52,355 nucleotides of DNA from a virus, in the IMG/VR virus record IMGVR_UViG_3300020183_000108, positions 1 through 52,355 of that record. One strand, written 5' to 3'. Positions within the stretch are counted from its first letter, which is position 1; each line of letters opens with the position of its first letter. The notes under the pieces were generated by a model. The model was not told the DNA's origin, did no database searches, and saw nothing but the letters and a program-made list of their open reading frames with translations. Of the stretch, positions 3,609 to 41,242 are shown one piece after another. Position numbers and translations under genes: made by a program.

Positions 3609-3958
3609 TGTCACGCTTTACAGGCATCCCCGAGATACCGCAGGGCGGTATTGACGAGTGGCAGTATCGCGTTCTTGATGCGATGAAGCAGAATGTTGAG
3701 CTGTTGACCAACACCCGGAACGAAGAAGATCAGGCCAGCGTGGCTATTACGCGGTCGAGTATCTCGACTCGTCCTCCCGGCGCCGCTCAGTTCCAGGGGC
3801 TGTCGGCTCGCGGCACGGGGTTCACCATCAGCGGTGTTCAGGTCCCGTCTCTTGACGATTACAACGCACTCTTGCAGGACTTTATCAGGTTGAGTCAGGA
3901 TGTGGCCAACCTCCGTTCTACCGTCTCAACGCTTATCACCCAGATAAGGGGGCTATGA
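3608..3958 (+). CDS. Small virion-associated protein with C-terminal coiled coil
   Basis: This 116-residue protein opens with a Gly/Pro-containing stretch (FTGIPEIPQGGIDEWQYR), has a Ser/Gly-rich middle, and ends with a heptad-like helix (FIRLSQDVANLRSTVSTLI) typical of trimerising phage structural proteins. It overlaps its neighbours at both ends (TAATG and ATGA), so it is translationally coupled within the structural operon. No known domain is recognised. A small tail or ejection-complex subunit is inferred from context only. Confidence 0.55.
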   Translation: MSRFTGIPEIPQGGIDEWQYRVLDAMKQNVELLTNTRNEEDQASVAITRSSISTRPPGAAQFQGLSARGTGFTISGVQVPSLDDYNALLQDFIRLSQDVANLRSTVSTLITQIRGL

Positions 3959-4722
3959 TGTCATACTCCACCACGTCGCTTGACCTGCCCCCGGCATTGG
4001 CAAGCCTGCTTGCTCCGACTGCTGCACCGGCTATGGGGCCGGGCGGTATCGCCACTTCTGCTATGGGCAACCGCGCCGCTATGATGGGTTCTGCTGCTAT
4101 GCCCACATATCAGATGGGCGGGATGGTCGGCCCCGGCGGTATGCCGATGCGGCCTGATATGGGTATGGGTAGCGCCATGGGTGGTATGCCCGGTCTGGCC
4201 CCTGCTGGCGCAATGCAGCAAACCCTTACTCCGGGTCAGGTTTCCGGCGAAGTTCAACGGTTTGTGCAGCAGAACCCCGACCAAGTGAACCAGATTCGTA
4301 TGCAGATTGAGCGGTTTGTTCAGTCCGGTCAGGTTACGCTCCAAGAACTAAATATGATGGTTCAGATGGCGCAAGCTGCGGCTAGTAACCCAGCACTTTA
4401 CAAACAGCTTCGTATGATCGCCATTCAGCGCGGGTTGGCTACAGCCGATGAGGTCAGTGAGGAGTTCGACCCCGGCCTCATTTTTGTTCTGCTTTTGATC
4501 GGTTCTGCTATGCAGTCTGGTGGTATGCAGCCGGATGCTATGCCTTCTTTGAAGAAAGGCGGGATGCTTCCTAGGAAGGCGGCTGATGACGGCGAAGCCG
4601 TGGTTGCTCAGCTTCATGAAGGTGAGTACGTCATCCCGGCCCACATTGTCCGGGCCAAGGGTACCGAATTTTTCGACAAGATGTTGCAGACGCACAAGCA
4701 ATCCAATGACTCGGACGATTGA
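3955..4722 (+). CDS. Met/Gly-rich virion protein with conserved C-terminal FFDKM motif
   Basis: The 255-residue protein has a first 90 residues dominated by Met, Gly, Ala and Pro (repeated MG and GGM units), an amphipathic helical middle (QVNQIRMQIERFVQSGQVTL), a hydrophobic segment (PGLIFVLLLIGSA, about 177-190), and the C-terminal block EGEYVIPAHIVRAKGTEFFDKM. That last block recurs in predicted virion proteins of many marine phages. A membrane-active ejection component would fit the hydrophobic segment and the place in the operon, but function is unknown. It overlaps the next gene by 17 bases. Confidence 0.55.
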   Translation: MMSYSTTSLDLPPALASLLAPTAAPAMGPGGIATSAMGNRAAMMGSAAMPTYQMGGMVGPGGMPMRPDMGMGSAMGGMPGLAPAGAMQQTLTPGQVSGEVQRFVQQNPDQVNQIRMQIERFVQSGQVTLQELNMMVQMAQAAASNPALYKQLRMIAIQRGLATADEVSEEFDPGLIFVLLLIGSAMQSGGMQPDAMPSLKKGGMLPRKAADDGEAVVAQLHEGEYVIPAHIVRAKGTEFFDKMLQTHKQSNDSDD

Positions 4723-5134
4723 GCATCTGACCCCTGCCCGGGTTGAGGAGTTATGGCCCTACATAGAGCCGCTCCTCTACCACGTGGATTACGAGGGTAT
4801 CGACGCCCCCAATCCTATAAACCCTGAGTACGTGCGAACTACGGCTCGGTATGGTGTGACCAACATCTTGGGGATATTTGACGGAGAGCATCTGGACCTG
4901 ATCGTGGTCTCCGAATTTGCTATTGTGCGCGGGGTCAAAACTGCTAGTATTTCAGCCATGGCTGGTAAAGGGTTGTTGAAGGCTCGTTCCGAGGTTTGGC
5001 AGGACATTCTGGCGTGGTTCAAAGCCGCAGGTGCTTGCGCTGTGGACGCATATGCGAAACCAAGACTTGCTAGGATATACCAGCAAAAGTTTGGCTTTGA
5101 TCAGGGTTGTTCCTATATACGTATGGAACTTTAG
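4706..5134 (+). CDS. GNAT-fold acetyltransferase-like protein of the ejection cluster
   Basis: This 142-residue protein begins MTRTIEHLTPARVEELW and shows the order of elements of a GCN5-related N-acetyltransferase: a helix near the start, central strands (ILGIFDG, LDLIVVSEFAIV), a helix (KGLLKARSEVWQDILAWFKAAG) and the C-terminal YQQKFGF turn. The usual acetyl-CoA loop Q/RxxGxG/A is only partly visible (AMAGKG), so activity is uncertain. GNAT-like folds also occur in podovirus internal virion proteins such as T7 gp13, and its neighbours are ejection-type proteins, so a structural role is as likely as catalysis. The start inside the upstream gene is the one that preserves the conserved N-terminus. 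Confidence 0.6.
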   Translation: MTRTIEHLTPARVEELWPYIEPLLYHVDYEGIDAPNPINPEYVRTTARYGVTNILGIFDGEHLDLIVVSEFAIVRGVKTASISAMAGKGLLKARSEVWQDILAWFKAAGACAVDAYAKPRLARIYQQKFGFDQGCSYIRMEL

Positions 5135-8440: not shown

Positions 8441-11400
8441 ATGGCATCAGGTCTTTACTATGCACCGCTTGAGTTGGCAGAGAGCTTGGCTATGCCGGTT
8501 GCGCCGGAGAGCACTACACAAGCCTCTGGTTTGGGTAATCTCGGTGCTGCCGGTGATGTGTATGGCATCACCACTGTCGGCGGGAACGCCGGTGATATTT
8601 ATGGTCTCACACAGCAAGCTATGCAGAGGACCGCTGGGCTTGCACCTCCACTCCCGGCGCCGCCCACGGCAGCACCCGAAGGAACCGGCGCCGCTTTCTA
8701 TAGCCCGTCCACTGGTAAGATGTTCGCCGGTGGTATGGCGTTTGACCAGCGTGATGTTCAGTCGGCGCTTCGCGCAGCGCAGCAGTTTACCGCAGCCGCG
8801 GGTACTCGCCCTCCTCCAGATGTGCCTGACTGGCGACCCATATCGCGGGTGGCATATGAGAACTATCTTACTGGTTTGAGTGCCCCTCGCGGTTTCGGTG
8901 AGAACCTCGTACTTGGTGCACGCGGCGCTGTTGGTGGGTTTATCAGCGGTATTGGTCGCGGTGCTGAGATGCTTGGTGCCACTACGGTGGGTCCGGCTAT
9001 TGCAGGTGTTGGTGAAGCCATCACGGGTCAGGATGAATTTGACAAGCAACGGTCGGCGCTGATTCAACAGTCTAATTCGCTTGTCAGCAATATCCTTGAT
9101 GCTGCTGTGCAGGGCATCCCATCTGTCGCAATGTCAGCCGGTGCCGGTCTTGTGGGCGGTATCGTAGGCGGTGCCGTTGGCGGTCCTGCCGGTGCCGCTG
9201 CTGGTGCTACCACTGCCGCTACTGCGGCCCAAGCAGGTCGAGCCTTGGCTGCTGCGCGTGGTATCGGCGCTGTTGTTGGCCTTGGTGCGGTCAGCTTTCC
9301 TCAGCAACTCAATACGTTCTATGAAGCGGCGCAGAACGCCAGGGATGCGCAGGGTCGTCCGGCCTATGATGTAAACGACCCAAATGTTCAGCTTACCATC
9401 GCCGGTGCTGCTCTTGGTACATCGCTGCTTGACGTAATCGCCCCGGGTCGCGTCGCGTTTGGTCTATCTCGTGCCCTCACTGAAGGCGCTCAGCAGGCTG
9501 GGACTCAGGCCCTCACCGGGTTGGCCCGAGCCAGGGCAGTCGGCGGGAGCGCAGCTCGCAGCGGGTTTGAAGAAGCTGCCACTGAAGCCGCGCAGACCTT
9601 GGCTGAGCGGGCTGTATTTGACCCTGAGTTCCGTCGGCAGCTCAACGCCGAGGACATGAAGGCGCTTGCCCCATACATCGTCAACACGTATGGCCAGGAT
9701 GTTCTCATCGCAGCCGGTGCCGGTGCGCTTCTTGGTGCTGGATTCGGTGGTGCCGGTCGCTTCATCGAGACAAGGGGTGCAGGTTCTCAGCCGCGTGATA
9801 TCCTCGACCCGAAGCAGACCACTGCTGTTGGTGGCACGGATGCAGGCGAGACTGGTACCGAGCCCACAACCATAGGCGGCCCTCCTCCGGGTACTCCTCC
9901 GGGTACTCCTCCGGGTACTCCTCCGGGTACTCCTCCGGGTACGTCCGGCGTTTCTACTCGCGTTGTTTCTACCTCCCCCGGCGCACTCACTATTGCCCCT
10001 GGGGCTATGGATTTAACGCAGACCGGTTATCTCCAGGCATATGCGCGGCGTATGCCTGATCCCCTTGGTGTTGCCGGTTTTGGTGGTGCGGATGATACGT
10101 TTAATCGTATGGTTTCAGGTCCTGCGCCGGGTACCGAAGCCCCGCTGACATCTTATATCTATCCGGGGCCTATTCTTACTGAGCCCGAACTGACCACTCA
10201 ACCTCGCACTCCACTCAACGTAATCCCGGGTGCTCCTGCTGTTGCACCGTACACACCAACACCTACGGCACCTATTCCATCAGGGTCTCAACCGATTACT
10301 TTGGTGGCGCCGGGGGCCGACGCCCTTCGCGCACAGCGCGGGCTGACAGCTACGGCGCAGCAACGGCAGGTCGAGCAAGACATCCAATCTCGGGTGCAAG
10401 CCAACGCGAGTGCGCCACGTCCTGATGTTCTGTACGATCCGGCTGATCCTGGCACCACTCAACGTGCCATGCGGTCTCTCGGGGTTTCCATTGAGGAAGT
10501 GCTTAGGTTGCGCGACCCTATGCGCGCTATGGCTGGTGCGCCGGTTACGCTTAGGGATGTTAACGAAGCTGCGGCTTTGCTTGGCCGCACCCGCGCCTCC
10601 GGTGCTGTAGCGGTTCGCCCTACCCCGGAAGTGTCTTCCATTATGGCACAAGCCATGCGGGATGCCGGGCTGACTGTTGAAGATGTGGTAGCGGCACGCA
10701 ACCGCCTACGCAGTGGCCCGGTTACTTATGAAGATGTGCGCATTGCTGCCCGGCGCAAGGGTACGGAACTACCGGTTCGTATGGCTCGGACTGCGGCCCC
10801 TGAGCCTATGGTTGAGACGGCTCTCCCTCCTGCGCTTGAAGCACTTGCTGCGGCCCCTACGCCTACGCCTACGCCCGCAACCAAGCTCAAGAAAGGAAAA
10901 GCTCGTGCCGCTCAAGTCAGGGAAGACGAACAAGGTGGTGTCGGCCAACGTACAGGAACTGGTGGACCGGTACCAAGCAAAGGGGAAGATCGGCTCAAGT
11001 CGACCAAAAAACAAAGAGGCGGCGGTCAAACAGGCCGTAGCAATCTCACTCGCCAAGGCCGGGCGGCAGCGCAAGAAGTAACACCTGCACCGGCCACGGA
11101 GGTGGCCGCTCAGCGCCCTTTAGAGCAGCCCGCGCCAAGCGCGACAGAAAGAGCGGCTCCATCCGTAACTCCAAGGGCTGAGGCTGCGGCACCAAGTGCG
11201 GTAGATCGTCAGATCACCCGGGCGGCTACCAGTGCCGACCCGACGGCACAGCTTCGTACACTGAAGAATGAACTGATCACGCGGCGCGACGCGACCGCTG
11301 ATGCTGGTCGCAGTACGACTGAACTGACCGGCGCAATTGCGCGTATTGATGCGCTGCTTGCCGAAGGCCCGATCACCACACCGGCTGTCGAAGGTGTGTC

Positions 11401-14400
11401 CGGTCCGGGTTCACCGCAGTCCGTCTGGGCTTCGGCCATGAACGATGATGGTGTTGGTTACACCCAGATGTCTGAAGATGGTCGCCGCGCTTGGGATAAC
11501 GAAGTGGCTACCAGTCCTGTGCCGCCCACTGCGGAACGGGCTCAGTATTACCAAGACACGTTTCTGCCCCAAGATACCCAGCGCGGCATCAGTTACGTGC
11601 GCAGCCTTGCCAGCAAGCTGGCATCTGCCAGCGATGAGCGATACATTCAGATCACTGAGAAGCTGAGTGAGTTGGCCAGCTCTGATAACCAACGTGTTGC
11701 CGCTGAAGCGCAGCGTGCCCTGGATGGTGAACTATCTGGTACGCCCGGTAAGTTCTCTCTTGCCGGATGGAATACCCGTCAGGGGACGGTCAGCGCCGAT
11801 GGTTCACCCACCACACCGATGGCTGTCGGTCGGGTGCGGATGCTTGTCAATAACTTCGTAGCTAAACTGGCAACCAAACCGAAGGTCACGGTGGTGGCCA
11901 ACCAGCAGGAACTACAGCGCACCAACCCGGCGCTGTATCAGCAAGCCATGGCTGCTCGCCCGCAGGGTGACTTCGCCACGGCCAACGCTGCTGGGTACTC
12001 CTTCGGTGACGGCAACGTCATCATCTTCACTGACCGTATTGTCAATGAGCAGCACCTGCGGTTCGTGCTGGCCCATGAGACCTTCGGCCACTTCGGTATG
12101 CGCGGGATCATGCCCGCAGCGCGCTTCGATGCGCTTATGGAAAACATCTATGAGACAGATGGAAGCGCCAAGCTGGCAGTTGATGCCGCTATGGAAGTGC
12201 GCGGGCTGAGCAAGGCCGAGGCCGTTGAGGAGTATCTATCTGACTACGCTGGGCTGCTTGAGACCAGCACGGTTGCCCGGGTGTGGAACACTATCAAGGG
12301 CTTCCTTGAACGCCTCGGTGTGAAGTTCGGTGATACAGCCACTCGGTACTTCCTTGACCAGTCGCGCCGTTATGTGCGGCAGGGTGCCCAGGGTGTGACC
12401 TTTGATGCAGAGGCGGTGGCAAAGCGGCTGCACGCTGTTGAGTACGGCGATACCGGCACTGGCCGGTTCAGCCCGCAGGCAGCGATGAGCGCCAATGCGA
12501 AGGCCAACTTCTTCGCATCACAACTGGCCGAGTTTCCGACAAGCTTGGCTGATGCTTGGAACACAATCACCGACCAGAAAGAGAATATAGCTGATATATA
12601 CACGGACTTTAAGAACAAGTTCCTCAGCCTTGCAAATTACACCGGGTTGAAGAATCCGGGGGCATTCAAGTTTGTCGATTTATTGAGCCAGACCAATTCA
12701 AAATCTATGGCAGTTAAGTCAGCATTAAATGAATACCTGCGCCCTGTGCTCGATGCTCCCAAGGCTGTGCAAGATAAAATCTCACGCGCCATGTATAGTG
12801 CACGTAGTTACAAGATCAGTCAGTTCAAAGCCGGGGAACTCGGCAAAGAACCTCTGTTCAAGGTTGCTGCTGATGGTAGCCTCACCCCAAATACGGCTGA
12901 GCAAGATCGGATTTTCAAAGCCGGTCTGATGACACTCAAGCAGATTCAAGATGGCTACTCGTACAACCGTGAGATCGAAGGTACTGATGGTAAAGTCACC
13001 ACGGTAGAGGAAACCGTGGCCGGTCAAAAGGACTTCACCAAAGAAGATTACGCTTTGTACGAGCGTACTCGGCGCGCTGTATTCAATGTTGAGATGCAGC
13101 TACTCGAAGCCGAGTATGGCGAGCTCATGGCTAATAAGCGCCTGACCAACAAAGAAATCAGTGGGTTCATGGCAGATAACAAACTCACTGCTGAGGATCG
13201 TCGCTTCGTTGATTCTATGGCACGCCGCGCACTGGCTCTCTACACCGAGGGTGCCGGTACTGACCCCACAGGTAACGCTGTGATTGACCCGAAAGCCATG
13301 AAGAAGTCCGATGATTTCTTGGCCGCTGTTAATACTGCGGTGATCGGCACTGATACAGACCGCACTGAAGCGCCCGATGTCAAAACCGGCTTGAGGATAC
13401 GCGACTACTTTGTTTCGCCGCAGGCGGCTGATGCGTTCATCACTGAGCTGACCGCGTTTAAGAATCGTCGTCGGGAGATCACTGATGACAATAGGTTCTT
13501 CCTACAAGGGAAAGTGAAGCAACTCATTCTCAACGAACACAACCTGAACACCAGGGATAAGATCGCACGCCGCGCTGTGATGACCGGATACACCCCGGTG
13601 TTGCGTGAAGGTAGGTTTCAGACCCGCGTTCAGGCATATGTTGGTAATAAGCTCGTTGAGGTAAAAGACGCGCATAAGGCGCTGCTTTCCTACTCTCAGT
13701 TTAACACCGGGCCAGAAGCTAAAGCTATGGCTGTAATGCTCGATAAGGAGTTCGAGGGTAAGACGTTTGAGGTTTTGGTACGCAATGACGCCGGTGAGTT
13801 TGTGCCCACCAGGGTGACGCTTCGTGCTACGACCGGGCGCACAGTGAATGCCGTAGCCGCTGATCCACAGCTTAACCTACAAGATTTCCTGTATGGGCTG
13901 AACCTGTTCAACGTAAATCTCAACCCGGAGAGCATGGCACGTATTGTTACTACGCTGTCGCGTCAGGGTGATAGCGCACGCAGGCGGTTGGAGTACTCTC
14001 AGACCCCCGGTTTCGATCCAACCACCGGTGTCTATGCCATCTCACGGCATATTGAGGGTCGTGCTTCCACCATTGCTAAGGCCAGCACGCGGCAGGCGCT
14101 GCGCGAACTGATGAACCTCGAACTCCCTGAATCACGCACCCTGTGGACGGGTAACAAGCCCCTGGTAGATCAGTTGCAGGCTGAGTTGAACAGACTCAAT
14201 GCCGACCCAAATGCGTCCGAGGATGCCAAGCGGTACACGCTGCAACAACTCACACAGGCGCAGTATCAATACCGCATGACCAACCCAGAGGGGCGTCCTG
14301 AACGCTCTATGATGTTCTATAACCAGTCTGCCTCCACCATGGACTACCTTGAGGGCAGCAAGTATGTAGATGAGACCGACTTCGGCGCAGGTCCTGTTGC

Positions 14401-15982
14401 TTCTCGGGTCCGTGCTTACACCAGCATATGGCAGCTTGGCGGCAGCATGGCTCAGGGTGTCCTGAACCTGATCAGCCCGTACACTAACTGGATGCCATAC
14501 ATGGCTAGCTTCAATGCAAAGAGCGGCTTCGGTGGCGGGTTCAGTATCGGTAAGGTGCAGGCAGCTTACCACTCAGCTTTCCGTCAGGTGGGTGCGCCGG
14601 GTATTCTCCGCATGGAGATGAACCGGGCTGAGTTCTATGACAACGTGGCCAAAGACCCAGCCCTCCAAAAGAAACACGGTCTGACGGTTGATGAAGCTCA
14701 GGCAATCGCCACTGAAATCCGTGAAGGTAAGCTGATTCCGGCGCAGTCAAATGCACTCATTGCCACTGCGCGGGGGCAAACAACCAACAAGTTTCTGCGT
14801 AAGTTTATCGACGGGTACATGCTCCCGTTTAACTTGTCCGAACAGGCGGCCCGTCGTGCGGCTTTCTTGGCTGCGTACCGCTTGAAGCGGGATCAGGCCC
14901 TCGGCGCCGGTAAGTCTCAGAAGGAAGCACAGCAGGAAGCAAGTGACTTCGCGGTGAAGTCCATCGACCTGACTTTAGGGGATTACTCGGTTCTGAACCG
15001 GCCACCCGCGTTCCGGGCTGGCATCACATCCTTCCTCTATATGTACAAGACGTACCCGACCACCACGATCCAGTTACTGGCCAATCTGTCCCGGCCTGCG
15101 CAACTATCCATGCTGGCAGGGCTGTGGTTCCTTTCCGGCGCTGCGGGTCTGCCGTTTGCTGAGGACCTTGAAGACCTTATTGATACCATCTCGCAGAAAC
15201 TAGGGTTCCGGCAAGGTAGCATCCGGGGTGAGATCATCAAGCACATCGAGGCTACGTTCCCTGGCATGTCAGCGCCGTTCCTCAAGGGCTTGGTAAATGA
15301 GTTCCTGCCAATACCCATGGACATCGCTTCTCGTACTTCTGTTGGTAACATCGTCCCTGGTTCTGGGATTGCCTTGGCTGGGGCAGATGTGGGACGTGAA
15401 GTTCTTGATATTCTCGGCCCCGCACCCGGTTTCCTCCTCGGCGCCGCTTCGATGGCGCGTAACTTGGTGGCGTTCCCGTTCTCGTCACGGGTAAGCCTGG
15501 AAGATGTGGCCCGGGAATCGCCGATCACCCTGCTCCGGTTAATGGGTGACTCGTACGCTTACCTACAGTCGGGTGCCGTGGTTGACCGCCGTGGGTATGT
15601 GGTCAGTAAGGATATGGATGCGGGGACCATTCTTACTCGGTTGTTTGGTTTCTACCCCACGCAGGCGGCAAACCAGTACGATGTTATCCGCATCGCCAAC
15701 CGCACCACTGACTACCAGAAGGAAGCCGTGGCTTCGTTCCGTCACGCTTGGATCAAGGCTACCCTGCGCGGTGATACGCAGACAGCCAACGAGATCATGA
15801 ACGACGTGCGCGAATGGAACAACGCCACACGCGGCACCCCACTGGAAATCAGGAACTTCTCAACTGGTAACGCCAGGGCATTGCGTGAGGCTCGGCGGTC
15901 AGCGAGTGAGCGCGCACTGCGCGCGGCACCCCAGGCAGCACAGGGAGACATCCGGGGGTATATCGACGCCCTGATCGATTAG
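8441..15982 (+). CDS. Giant polyvalent ejection protein with zincin-like metallopeptidase motif
   Basis: This protein of 2513 residues has, in order: an N-terminal Ala/Gly region with glycine-zipper hydrophobic segments (about 150-300, 390-430); a (PGTP)n linker near residue 485; a disordered Pro/Ala linker (about 580-960); a domain with HETFGHFGMRG (His1212, Glu1213, His1217), which matches the HExxGHxGxR-type zincin motif of phage polyvalent proteins; a long helical region (1350-2150); and a C-terminal section with MYKTYPTTTIQLL and hydrophobic AGLWFLSGAAGLPF. Such giants are injected with DNA and act on the host or form the conduit. No RNA polymerase motifs of the N4 type were seen. A separate small gene lies out of frame in the linker at 10905-11081. 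Confidence 0.8.
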   Translation: MASGLYYAPLELAESLAMPVAPESTTQASGLGNLGAAGDVYGITTVGGNAGDIYGLTQQAMQRTAGLAPPLPAPPTAAPEGTGAAFYSPSTGKMFAGGMAFDQRDVQSALRAAQQFTAAAGTRPPPDVPDWRPISRVAYENYLTGLSAPRGFGENLVLGARGAVGGFISGIGRGAEMLGATTVGPAIAGVGEAITGQDEFDKQRSALIQQSNSLVSNILDAAVQGIPSVAMSAGAGLVGGIVGGAVGGPAGAAAGATTAATAAQAGRALAAARGIGAVVGLGAVSFPQQLNTFYEAAQNARDAQGRPAYDVNDPNVQLTIAGAALGTSLLDVIAPGRVAFGLSRALTEGAQQAGTQALTGLARARAVGGSAARSGFEEAATEAAQTLAERAVFDPEFRRQLNAEDMKALAPYIVNTYGQDVLIAAGAGALLGAGFGGAGRFIETRGAGSQPRDILDPKQTTAVGGTDAGETGTEPTTIGGPPPGTPPGTPPGTPPGTPPGTSGVSTRVVSTSPGALTIAPGAMDLTQTGYLQAYARRMPDPLGVAGFGGADDTFNRMVSGPAPGTEAPLTSYIYPGPILTEPELTTQPRTPLNVIPGAPAVAPYTPTPTAPIPSGSQPITLVAPGADALRAQRGLTATAQQRQVEQDIQSRVQANASAPRPDVLYDPADPGTTQRAMRSLGVSIEEVLRLRDPMRAMAGAPVTLRDVNEAAALLGRTRASGAVAVRPTPEVSSIMAQAMRDAGLTVEDVVAARNRLRSGPVTYEDVRIAARRKGTELPVRMARTAAPEPMVETALPPALEALAAAPTPTPTPATKLKKGKARAAQVREDEQGGVGQRTGTGGPVPSKGEDRLKSTKKQRGGGQTGRSNLTRQGRAAAQEVTPAPATEVAAQRPLEQPAPSATERAAPSVTPRAEAAAPSAVDRQITRAATSADPTAQLRTLKNELITRRDATADAGRSTTELTGAIARIDALLAEGPITTPAVEGVSGPGSPQSVWASAMNDDGVGYTQMSEDGRRAWDNEVATSPVPPTAERAQYYQDTFLPQDTQRGISYVRSLASKLASASDERYIQITEKLSELASSDNQRVAAEAQRALDGELSGTPGKFSLAGWNTRQGTVSADGSPTTPMAVGRVRMLVNNFVAKLATKPKVTVVANQQELQRTNPALYQQAMAARPQGDFATANAAGYSFGDGNVIIFTDRIVNEQHLRFVLAHETFGHFGMRGIMPAARFDALMENIYETDGSAKLAVDAAMEVRGLSKAEAVEEYLSDYAGLLETSTVARVWNTIKGFLERLGVKFGDTATRYFLDQSRRYVRQGAQGVTFDAEAVAKRLHAVEYGDTGTGRFSPQAAMSANAKANFFASQLAEFPTSLADAWNTITDQKENIADIYTDFKNKFLSLANYTGLKNPGAFKFVDLLSQTNSKSMAVKSALNEYLRPVLDAPKAVQDKISRAMYSARSYKISQFKAGELGKEPLFKVAADGSLTPNTAEQDRIFKAGLMTLKQIQDGYSYNREIEGTDGKVTTVEETVAGQKDFTKEDYALYERTRRAVFNVEMQLLEAEYGELMANKRLTNKEISGFMADNKLTAEDRRFVDSMARRALALYTEGAGTDPTGNAVIDPKAMKKSDDFLAAVNTAVIGTDTDRTEAPDVKTGLRIRDYFVSPQAADAFITELTAFKNRRREITDDNRFFLQGKVKQLILNEHNLNTRDKIARRAVMTGYTPVLREGRFQTRVQAYVGNKLVEVKDAHKALLSYSQFNTGPEAKAMAVMLDKEFEGKTFEVLVRNDAGEFVPTRVTLRATTGRTVNAVAADPQLNLQDFLYGLNLFNVNLNPESMARIVTTLSRQGDSARRRLEYSQTPGFDPTTGVYAISRHIEGRASTIAKASTRQALRELMNLELPESRTLWTGNKPLVDQLQAELNRLNADPNASEDAKRYTLQQLTQAQYQYRMTNPEGRPERSMMFYNQSASTMDYLEGSKYVDETDFGAGPVASRVRAYTSIWQLGGSMAQGVLNLISPYTNWMPYMASFNAKSGFGGGFSIGKVQAAYHSAFRQVGAPGILRMEMNRAEFYDNVAKDPALQKKHGLTVDEAQAIATEIREGKLIPAQSNALIATARGQTTNKFLRKFIDGYMLPFNLSEQAARRAAFLAAYRLKRDQALGAGKSQKEAQQEASDFAVKSIDLTLGDYSVLNRPPAFRAGITSFLYMYKTYPTTTIQLLANLSRPAQLSMLAGLWFLSGAAGLPFAEDLEDLIDTISQKLGFRQGSIRGEIIKHIEATFPGMSAPFLKGLVNEFLPIPMDIASRTSVGNIVPGSGIALAGADVGREVLDILGPAPGFLLGAASMARNLVAFPFSSRVSLEDVARESPITLLRLMGDSYAYLQSGAVVDRRGYVVSKDMDAGTILTRLFGFYPTQAANQYDVIRIANRTTDYQKEAVASFRHAWIKATLRGDTQTANEIMNDVREWNNATRGTPLEIRNFSTGNARALREARRSASERALRAAPQAAQGDIRGYIDALID
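9881..9945 (+). repeat. 12-bp tandem repeat coding for Pro-Gly-Thr-Pro linker
   Basis: The unit TACTCCTCCGGG is repeated four times without interruption and has degenerate edges. It codes for four to five PGTP tetrapeptides within the giant ejection protein. The copies are identical at the DNA level, which points to recent slippage expansion and predicts length variation among relatives. Confidence 0.9.
10905..11081 (+). CDS. Overprinted small basic protein (DUF6496-like) inside the giant gene
   Basis: This 58-residue frame lies wholly inside the 8441-15982 gene in a different reading frame. It starts GTG 10905 with AAGGA at 10893-10897 placed 7 bases upstream, and ends TAA 11079-11081. The protein begins PLKSGKTNKVVSANV and ends AVAISLAKAGRQRKK. 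This pattern (a KSG opening, a VSxNV segment, then K-AVAI-LSKAG with a basic tail) is that of small conserved phage proteins of the DUF6496 kind. The host frame here is a low-complexity linker, so constraint on it is weak. The function of the family is unknown; its basic charge suggests nucleic acid contact. Coding status is inferred from family resemblance and the ribosome site. Confidence 0.6.
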   Translation: MPLKSGKTNKVVSANVQELVDRYQAKGKIGSSRPKNKEAAVKQAVAISLAKAGRQRKK

Positions 15983-39172: not shown

Positions 39173-41242
39173 ATGCCAGGACTTACCATACTCCGCGTCG
39201 TCAGCAACAGTGAGATCGAACGCGCTGAGCGTGAACGTATGGATGCCGAGCTTCAGGCTCGGCAAAACAGCGATCTCATCACGGGTTTTTCAGCGTACCT
39301 CAAGACGTGTTGGGATGCTGCGCGTATTGCCAAGGACCCGATCAACGATGTGATGCTCAGAGCTCTCCGTCAGCGCAACGGGGAGTATGAGGCGGATAAA
39401 CTTCAGGCGATTCGCGTTCAGGGCGGGTCTGAGGTTTACATGATGCTGACGGAAGTCAAGTGCCGTGCAGCAGAGAGTTGGCTTCGTGACATTCTTCTGG
39501 ATACCGGCTCGCCCCCCTGGGACATGCAACCTACGCCGATTCCTGACTTGTCCCCCGAACAGTCAGAGGAGGTTCAGCTCGCCTTTGCTGAGCAGGTGGT
39601 AAATATCATCCAATCCACCGGTCAGGCGCCGGACAAGACCCAGATGCTGGAACTCAGGGAGATGGTTTCCCAGGACTACCGGTTTAAGGTCTTGCAGGCC
39701 GCTCAAGCGCGCGTTGATCGGATGAAGATCAAGATTGATGACCAGTTTGCTCAGGGTGGTTGGGCCGATGCGTTCAACGAGTTCCTGACCGATCTGGTAA
39801 CCTTCCCCTGCGCCTTCCTCAAAGGGCCTATCGTGCGCCGTCAGCGCCACTTGGGTTGGGCCAAGGGTCCCGGAGGTGCGACCACCGTAGAAGCCGCTGA
39901 GCGGCTTGCGCCGGAGTTTGAGCGGGTCAGCCCATTCAATATCTACCCCGAGCCGGGTATCACCCGAATCAACGACGGGTATATTTTCGAGCATCATAAG
40001 CTGAGTCGGTCAGCACTGGCTGATCTTATCGGCGTGCCCGGGTATGATGATCAGGCGATTCGCAAGGTACTTAATGAGGGGCCAAGCCAGACCTGGGTGT
40101 CTGAGCCGACCGAGATGCAGCGTGAGGAGGAGGAGCGCAAATACTATACCGAGTTGCGCCCGACCGATATGTTCGATGCCCTTGAGTTCTGGGGTAAGGT
40201 CAGCGGCAAGATGCTTCGTGAGTGGGGCATGGATGCTTCTGAGGTACCTGATGAGGCCAAGGAGTACGATGCAAACGCTTGGCTTGTGGGCAATTATGTC
40301 ATCAAAGCCATCCTCAACTACGATCCATTGGGTGAGAAGCCCTATGTAAAGACCTCGTTCATCAAGATGCCGGGTGCCTTCTGGGGTCGCGCTATCCCAG
40401 AGATTATTGAGGATTTGCAGAATGTCTGCAACGCCGCCGCCCGGGCCTTGGTGAACAACATGAGCATCGCTTCCGGCCCACAGGTCGAGGTGAATCTTGA
40501 GCGCATCCCGCCCAACGAAGACATCACGCAAGTTCACCCTTGGAAAATTTGGCAGACGCTGAACGATCCCCTGGGTTCTTCTGCCCCGGCGGTCCGGTTC
40601 AACCAGCCGAACGACAATGCCGCCACCCTGATGGGTGTGTACGAGCGGTTCAGCCGACTGGCTGATGACCATTCAGGCATTCCGGCCTACATCTACGGTG
40701 ACACCAACGTGCAGGGGGCTGGGCGCACGGCTTCTGGCTTGTCGATGCTTATGGGGTCGGCGGGTAAGAGCATTCGGCAAGTGGTGATGCACATTGATTC
40801 GGATGTCACCAAGCCCATTGTTCAGCGTCAGTTTGTTTACAATATGCGTTACGATCCTGATGAGTCCATCAAGGGTGACGCGCAAATTATACCCCGCGGT
40901 GCTATCAACCTCGCGGTTCGTGAGACAGTCAACCTCCGGCGTGTTGAGTTCCTCAATGCTACTGCCAATGAGTTTGATATGCAGATTATTGGGGCTGACG
41001 GGCGTGCAGCCATCCTACGCGAAGTGGCTAAGGGGCTTCAGATGCCTGCCGAGGACATCGTACCCTCCCGTGAGCGGTTGGATTATCAGGCCCGAGTGCA
41101 GGCCCTTGGTCAACAGGCGCAGCAAGCCGCTTCAGCTCAACAGGGTGGTGCGGCCCCAAGGACGCTCGATCAGGCCGGTAATCCGGCGGGTGGCGCAGCG
41201 GCTACGGTAGTACGAAACCAGAACACGGGTACCGCAGGTTGA
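39173..41242 (+). CDS. Portal protein
   Basis: This 689-residue protein shows the features of large podovirus portals: a helical N-terminus with KCRAAESWLRDILL, a wing region with PFNIYPEPG, and near residues 500-530 the crown-clip segment YIYGDTNVQGAGRTASGLSM, followed by a basic helical C-terminus and a Gln/Ala-rich tail. Portals form the dodecameric DNA-entry channel. It sits between terminase and scaffold and its stop overlaps a small gene. ATG 39173 has no strong ribosome site; expression may follow from the upstream gene. Confidence 0.9.
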   Translation: MPGLTILRVVSNSEIERAERERMDAELQARQNSDLITGFSAYLKTCWDAARIAKDPINDVMLRALRQRNGEYEADKLQAIRVQGGSEVYMMLTEVKCRAAESWLRDILLDTGSPPWDMQPTPIPDLSPEQSEEVQLAFAEQVVNIIQSTGQAPDKTQMLELREMVSQDYRFKVLQAAQARVDRMKIKIDDQFAQGGWADAFNEFLTDLVTFPCAFLKGPIVRRQRHLGWAKGPGGATTVEAAERLAPEFERVSPFNIYPEPGITRINDGYIFEHHKLSRSALADLIGVPGYDDQAIRKVLNEGPSQTWVSEPTEMQREEEERKYYTELRPTDMFDALEFWGKVSGKMLREWGMDASEVPDEAKEYDANAWLVGNYVIKAILNYDPLGEKPYVKTSFIKMPGAFWGRAIPEIIEDLQNVCNAAARALVNNMSIASGPQVEVNLERIPPNEDITQVHPWKIWQTLNDPLGSSAPAVRFNQPNDNAATLMGVYERFSRLADDHSGIPAYIYGDTNVQGAGRTASGLSMLMGSAGKSIRQVVMHIDSDVTKPIVQRQFVYNMRYDPDESIKGDAQIIPRGAINLAVRETVNLRRVEFLNATANEFDMQIIGADGRAAILREVAKGLQMPAEDIVPSRERLDYQARVQALGQQAQQAASAQQGGAAPRTLDQAGNPAGGAAATVVRNQNTGTAG

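What the first reader, a model, noticed from the sequence alone, without database searches (positions are those of the whole stretch)
10905..11081. Small conserved-type gene overprinted in the giant ejection protein
A 58-residue frame with its own ribosome site (AAGGA, 7 bases before GTG) and the signature of a small phage family (VSANV, AVAISLAKAG, basic tail) lies out of frame inside the disordered linker of the 2513-residue gene. The host frame here reads as low-complexity Gly/Arg/Lys-rich sequence. This looks like overprinting in which the linker frame was free to vary.
Basis: partly seen in the sequence, partly recalled or inferred. Interest (0 to 1): 0.8.

Follow-up and report, generated by a model that had tools for sequence, protein, structure and literature searches.

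The report
Small phage gene nested in giant gene
A 58-residue phage protein, normally made from its own separate gene, is encoded here out of frame inside the disordered linker of a giant phage protein, and the same gene has been housed this way in several different giant genes, so one DNA stretch serves two proteins and standard annotation is likely to miss one of them.

Summary
A 58-aa ORF (GTG 10905 to TAA 11081, ribosome site AAGGA seven bases upstream) lies in the +1 frame of the 2513-aa gene 8441-15982. It is a real, conserved gene: it matches PHROG_2423 (E 2.7e-7), and 33 further IMG/VR contigs carry it intact inside a giant ORF, always in the same phase. Substitutions in the overlap fall mainly on the small frame's third positions; a blind scan of the giant gene ranks this stretch lowest of about 800 windows. 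The giant frame is also kept open: T occurs at 0 of 231 stop-making sites, against 33% of comparable codons elsewhere.

Stand-alone relatives are widespread, often just after the portal gene in Pam1-like phages. Four giant-gene groups hold the gene; A, B and C share nothing detectable outside the overlap, and related group-B giants lack it. So an older gene was captured and the linker frame laid over it. DUF6496 is not supported. The giant resembles a phage polyvalent protein (HETFGH motif). Expression and function are untested; a late virion-assembly role is inferred from position only. Closest precedent: the out-of-frame ShiLan HNH insertion.

The parts
10905..11081 (+). Nested small gene, 58 aa, GTG start, TAA stop, +1 frame of the giant gene; PHROG_2423 family
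10893..10897 (+). Shine-Dalgarno AAGGA, 7 bases before GTG; an SD-like site precedes all 24 nested copies examined
8441..15982 (+). Giant host gene, 2513 aa, C-terminus in PHROG_11358/21376; polyvalent-protein-like
10793..11191 (+). Disordered linker of the giant protein (about host aa 785-917) that contains the nested gene
   Evidence: pLDDT below 50 over the whole stretch
12074..12091 (+). HETFGH: HEXXXH-type zincin motif of the giant protein, about 390 residues after the nested gene starts
39173..41242 (+). Portal/head-tail connector gene (PHROG_332/1216); in other phages the stand-alone small gene follows the portal gene, but this record has no copy there

Best explanation
An older, stand-alone late phage gene for a small basic two-helix protein (PHROG_2423 family) was captured in the disordered linker of a giant polyvalent-type protein gene, with a Shine-Dalgarno in front of it and in a phase where the host frame can run through it. 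Shown by sequence: the small frame is conserved as protein; the giant frame is kept open across it by near-total avoidance of T at small-frame third positions; the same small gene sits in several giant genes, three of which share no other detectable similarity; and relatives of one host gene lack it. Inferred: ribosomes make two products from one late mRNA, the full-length giant protein by reading through and the 58-aa protein by internal initiation at the nested start. Inferred with low certainty (about 35%): the small protein acts in late head or portal assembly or DNA packaging, because its stand-alone form often follows the portal gene.
For: 34 contigs (26 distinct DNA sequences) carry an intact small ORF with the giant frame open across it, always in the same phase. 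Substitutions move from giant position 3 in the flanks to giant position 1 (= small position 3) in the overlap; giant synonymous changes are 0-5% of codons in the overlap against roughly 20-35% in most flanks; the overlap is the top-ranked window of the gene. T at third positions: nested 0-2 of about 40 codons, stand-alone 4-24 of about 38, the two ranges do not overlap; 0 of 231 at stop-making sites. An SD-like site precedes every nested copy although upstream DNA differs; 13 of 15 are at -7.4 kcal/mol or better against 2.4% of background starts. Stand-alone relatives in phages and bacterial genomes, after the portal gene in Pam1-like phages. Giant groups A, B and C match each other only in the overlap; group D matches A only there. 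Group-B giants at 62-72% and 47-50% identity lack it, with no copy found elsewhere in 12 records. Same DNA: small frame a confident two-helix model, pLDDT 88; giant frame disordered.
Against: No transcript, ribosome or peptide data exist; translation of either product is inferred. The window's own SD is the weakest of the set (-5.6; 16% of background starts are as good) and its start is GTG. All nested copies found are from uncultivated metagenome contigs. The tree of a 58-column protein is poorly resolved, so the number of captures and their order among groups A-D are uncertain; for group A no relative without the gene was found. Group-B absence coincides with a different metallopeptidase-type motif in three giants, so module exchange or loss, not simple insertion, may explain the pattern there.
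Confidence: 0.87

Rival explanations
1. Classical overprinting: the small gene arose de novo in an alternative frame of the giant linker.
For: The linker is disordered and tolerant; all group-A giants that cover the site have the gene.
Against: Stand-alone homologues are widespread and diverse; the same protein sits in giant genes with no other detectable similarity; group-B giants exist without it. A de novo gene would not arise repeatedly with the same sequence.
Confidence: 0.04
2. Selfish mobile element like the ShiLan out-of-frame HNH insertion: the nested ORF persists because it homes into giant genes.
For: Disjunct presence among related giants, several host genes, host frame kept open, out-of-frame GTG/ATG ORF, as in ShiLan.
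Against: 58 aa, no Pfam match to a nuclease; most relatives are ordinary stand-alone genes, many at a fixed place after the portal gene.
Confidence: 0.04
3. Programmed frameshift product: the small frame is reached by ribosomes slipping from the giant frame, giving a truncated giant protein with a 58-aa tail.
For: In the window the small frame is open 71 codons upstream of the GTG.
Against: The upstream opening is not conserved (5 codons in L007/L008), conservation starts at the start codon, an SD-like site precedes every copy, and no shared slippery sequence is seen upstream.
Confidence: 0.03
4. The giant frame is not really translated across the overlap; two flanking genes happen to be joined by an open frame.
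For: Such an apparently accidental join was seen once, in L101 between a terminase-like gene and the next gene.
Against: 34 of 34 nested contigs keep the frame open although the chance is 0-4% each in the 17 tested, and T is avoided at 231 of 231 stop-making sites.
Confidence: 0.02

Closest known systems
[quoted passage not shown]
   Same: An ORF inserted out of frame in a phage gene, GTG start and TAA stop inside the insert, host frame left open and predicted to form a loop, patchy presence among relatives
   Different: There a 195-aa HNH homing endonuclease; here a 58-aa basic two-helix protein with no nuclease match, usually stand-alone elsewhere, in giant polyvalent-type genes, with codon-level evidence for both frames
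PHROG_2423 (unknown function)
   Same: Sequence match over residues 2-58 (E 2.7e-7)
   Different: Most relatives examined lie in ordinary separate genes; here nested in another gene, and of the long form with an extra loop of about 15 residues
Phage polyvalent proteins with zincin-like metallopeptidase domain (PMC5512222)
   Same: Giant phage protein with an HEXXXH motif (HETFGH)
   Different: A nested out-of-frame gene is not mentioned in the passages searched there; no Pfam domain match for the giant
Viral overlapping genes with disorder in one product (review PMC8227390)
   Same: Two products from one DNA, disorder in one eases the conflict
   Different: The review centres on de novo overprinted genes; here the older gene is the small nested one and the new frame is the large host gene

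Membership tests
PHROG_2423 | Profile match of the small protein | tested here: met
   E 2.7e-7, residues 2-58 against profile 2-43 of 52
DUF6496 (PF20106) | Pfam match above gathering score | tested here: not met
   No match for the window protein or A1 members; relatives L191 and L199 only 14.9 and 16.6 bits against 24
Same-strand nested overlapping gene | Both frames intact in relatives | tested here: met
   34 contigs, both frames open
Same-strand nested overlapping gene | Substitution pattern showing selection on the inner frame | tested here: met
   Phase shift of substitutions and synonymous suppression over the ORF
Same-strand nested overlapping gene | Translation of both products | not testable with these tools
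   Only indirect: SD and start, stop avoidance in the host frame
ShiLan-type out-of-frame insertion element | Out-of-frame ORF with host frame open and patchy distribution | tested here: met
ShiLan-type out-of-frame insertion element | HNH or other homing endonuclease domain | tested here: not met
   58 aa, no Pfam match, two-helix model
Phage polyvalent protein (host gene) | Zincin metallopeptidase HEXXH/HEXXXH motif | tested here: met
   HETFGH at aa 1212; HE(T/V)(F/L)GH in all group-A giants that reach it, HE(M/L)VH in group B, HELTH in D; none in C
Phage polyvalent protein (host gene) | Profile match to polyvalent domains | tested here: inconclusive
   No Pfam match; C-terminus matches PHROG_11358/21376 and, by tblastn, proteins annotated DarB-like or PLxRFG

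The most novel reading that the evidence does not exclude
Giant injected phage proteins act as repeated parking places for one particular small late gene: the gene has been nested independently in the disordered linkers of several different polyvalent-type proteins because co-expression from the giant's mRNA, or direct partnership with the giant protein during packaging, is advantageous.
Probability: 0.3. Interest if true: 0.78.

Novelty: new variant of a known kind. Interest (0 to 1): 0.63.

Why it matters
Overlapping genes are usually explained as a new gene printed over an old one. Here the old gene is the small inner one and the large gene runs its frame over it, in the same phase, in linkers of several giant phage proteins. 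It offers a natural series (stand-alone, nested in several hosts, absent) to test how nested genes originate, shows how a disordered linker can absorb a foreign gene, and predicts a hidden protein that standard gene callers would tend to miss.

Tried and rejected
DUF6496: searched by Pfam for the window protein and about 30 relatives, and by genome search for PF20106, which was empty and had no positive control; not met. Solved-structure sequence search and Foldseek of the two-helix model gave no informative PDB match; the viral library gave weak matches (best E 0.025), several of which by identity look like members of the same small family. L101 and L229 were considered as further nested cases and set aside: L101 looks like an accidental open frame between a terminase-like gene and the next gene, and L229's short covering ORF was not followed up. 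L047 (48 aa, shorter in the loop, both frames kept) could be an in-frame deletion or a replacement by a short-form gene: the tree puts it with short forms (95/92) but its DNA identity to L041 equals that of the flanks; left undecided. A test for extra amino-acid constraint on the giant frame was mostly not significant, so beyond avoiding stops and T-initial codons none is claimed. Literature searches found no report of this nested gene.

Full report
Observation. The window is a 52,355-base virus record with podovirus-type genes: terminase, a portal/connector gene, internal virion protein, endolysin, and a replication module on the minus strand. The 58-aa ORF 10905-11081 lies in the +1 frame of the 2513-aa gene 8441-15982. 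AAGGA ends seven bases before the GTG. The record has only this one copy.

The small protein is a known kind of phage protein. It matches PHROG_2423, unknown function, at E 2.7e-7 over residues 2-58. It has no Pfam match, so the DUF6496 suggestion is not supported; two far relatives reach only sub-threshold DUF6496 scores. IMG/VR scans returned many relatives. In most of them the gene stands alone, with the other frames broken by stops. In Pam1-like podoviruses, including the sequenced phage DSL-LC04 (OR003939), it directly follows or slightly overlaps the end of the portal gene. Relatives also occur in bacterial genome contigs, largely Betaproteobacteria, where no giant covering frame was seen.

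Nested copies. In 34 contigs (26 distinct DNA sequences) the small ORF is intact inside a long ORF that stays open across it, always in the same phase. These long ORFs form four groups. Group A (15 contigs) is the window's giant and its homologues; every homologue that covers the site has the small gene. Group B (17 contigs) is a different giant with a PHROG_18222 C-terminus. Group C is L018 and group D is L211. Profile comparison of A, B and C finds only one significant match between them, the overlap itself. D also matches A only there, but shares weak similarity with B elsewhere (22-28% identity). One block shared by B and D lies after the small gene in B and before it in D.

Selection on the small frame. 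In pairs of relatives, changes in the overlap fall mainly on the small frame's third positions, and giant-frame synonymous changes drop to 0-5% of codons against roughly 20-35% in most flanks. A blind 57-codon scan along the whole giant gene ranks the overlap first in window/L034, window/L036 and L128/L127, at nearly exact coordinates.

Selection on the giant frame. Given each small protein and its contig's codon usage, the chance that the giant frame is open is 0-0.04, often near 0.002, and all 17 tested are open. T, the base that would create stops in the giant frame, is absent at 231 of 231 dangerous third positions; it is also nearly absent at harmless ones (6 of 410, against 33% elsewhere in these giants). 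Stand-alone genes use T freely (4-24 of about 38 codons against 0-2 of about 40 in nested ones). T-initial codons in the giant frame are 0.6% in the overlap, 5.7% in the flanking linker and 14.7% elsewhere, so the overlap has almost no aromatic residues. Beyond this, most comparisons show no extra amino-acid constraint.

Translation signals. A Shine-Dalgarno-like site precedes all 24 nested copies examined, although the upstream DNA differs among groups. Thirteen of 15 reach -7.4 kcal/mol or better, against 2.4% of 1991 background ATG/GTG codons in the same phase; the window's own site is weaker, -5.6, matched by 16% of background.

Two folds from one DNA. The small frame is modelled as two helices, residues 9-26 and 37-51, pLDDT 88. 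The giant frame is modelled as disordered over about residues 785-917, pLDDT mostly 32-38, between more ordered helical stretches.

Origin. In group B the gene is present in giants 83-100% alike and absent from homologous giants at 62-72% and 47-50% identity; in L137 and L148 the upstream linker aligns up to about the site. Twelve records lacking it have no copy elsewhere; all 14 positive records searched returned the gene, each as one place (L047 as two fragments of one). These negatives rest on a profile search and, for fragments, on incomplete genomes. Three group-B giants without the gene also carry a different metallopeptidase-type motif, so module exchange is possible. The small-protein tree puts A and B close together and C apart, with weak support; a second tree is less resolved still. 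The simplest reading is capture of an older stand-alone gene, with more than one capture or with transfer between giant genes. The number of events is not settled.

Host protein. The giant has HETFGH, the HEXXXH form of the zincin motif described for phage polyvalent proteins, which are thought to be injected with the DNA (PMC5512222). Its C-terminus resembles proteins annotated DarB-like or PLxRFG. Injection is inferred from that resemblance, not shown.

Function. Inferred only. Position after the portal gene suggests a late head, portal or packaging role; strong positive charge (+12) would fit nucleic-acid or virion contact. I give this about 35%.

Known precedents. [quoted passage not shown] The arrangement here is therefore a new variant of a known kind: not an endonuclease, a gene with a stand-alone life elsewhere, several giant hosts, and codon evidence for both frames. 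Searches of open-access papers found no earlier report; most subscription journals were not covered.

Noticed in passing
window 12074-12091: HETFGH, an HEXXXH-type metallopeptidase motif, in the giant protein; HE(M/L)VH in group-B giants that carry the small gene but HEVTGH/HEIAGH in three group-B giants that lack it.
   Followed up: partly
window 9882-9942: Perfect 12-base tandem repeat, 5.1 copies, giving PPGT repeats in the giant protein.
   Followed up: no
L047:6702-6848: Nested copy shorter in the loop with both frames kept: an in-frame deletion or replacement by a short-form gene.
   Followed up: partly
L129:1976-10311: The giant gene is split into two overlapping frames (1769 and 1055 codons), a real frameshift or a sequencing error; the small ORF upstream is intact.
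   Followed up: no
L101:2-1675: Stand-alone small gene after a terminase-like gene with an apparently accidental open frame joining both neighbours, a possible picture of how nesting could begin.
   Followed up: partly
L098, L099, L256: The small domain forms the N-terminus of longer proteins.
   Followed up: no
window 3955-4722 and 4586-5134: Two ORFs of 255 and 182 aa without PHROG matches overlap by 137 bases on the same strand.
   Followed up: no
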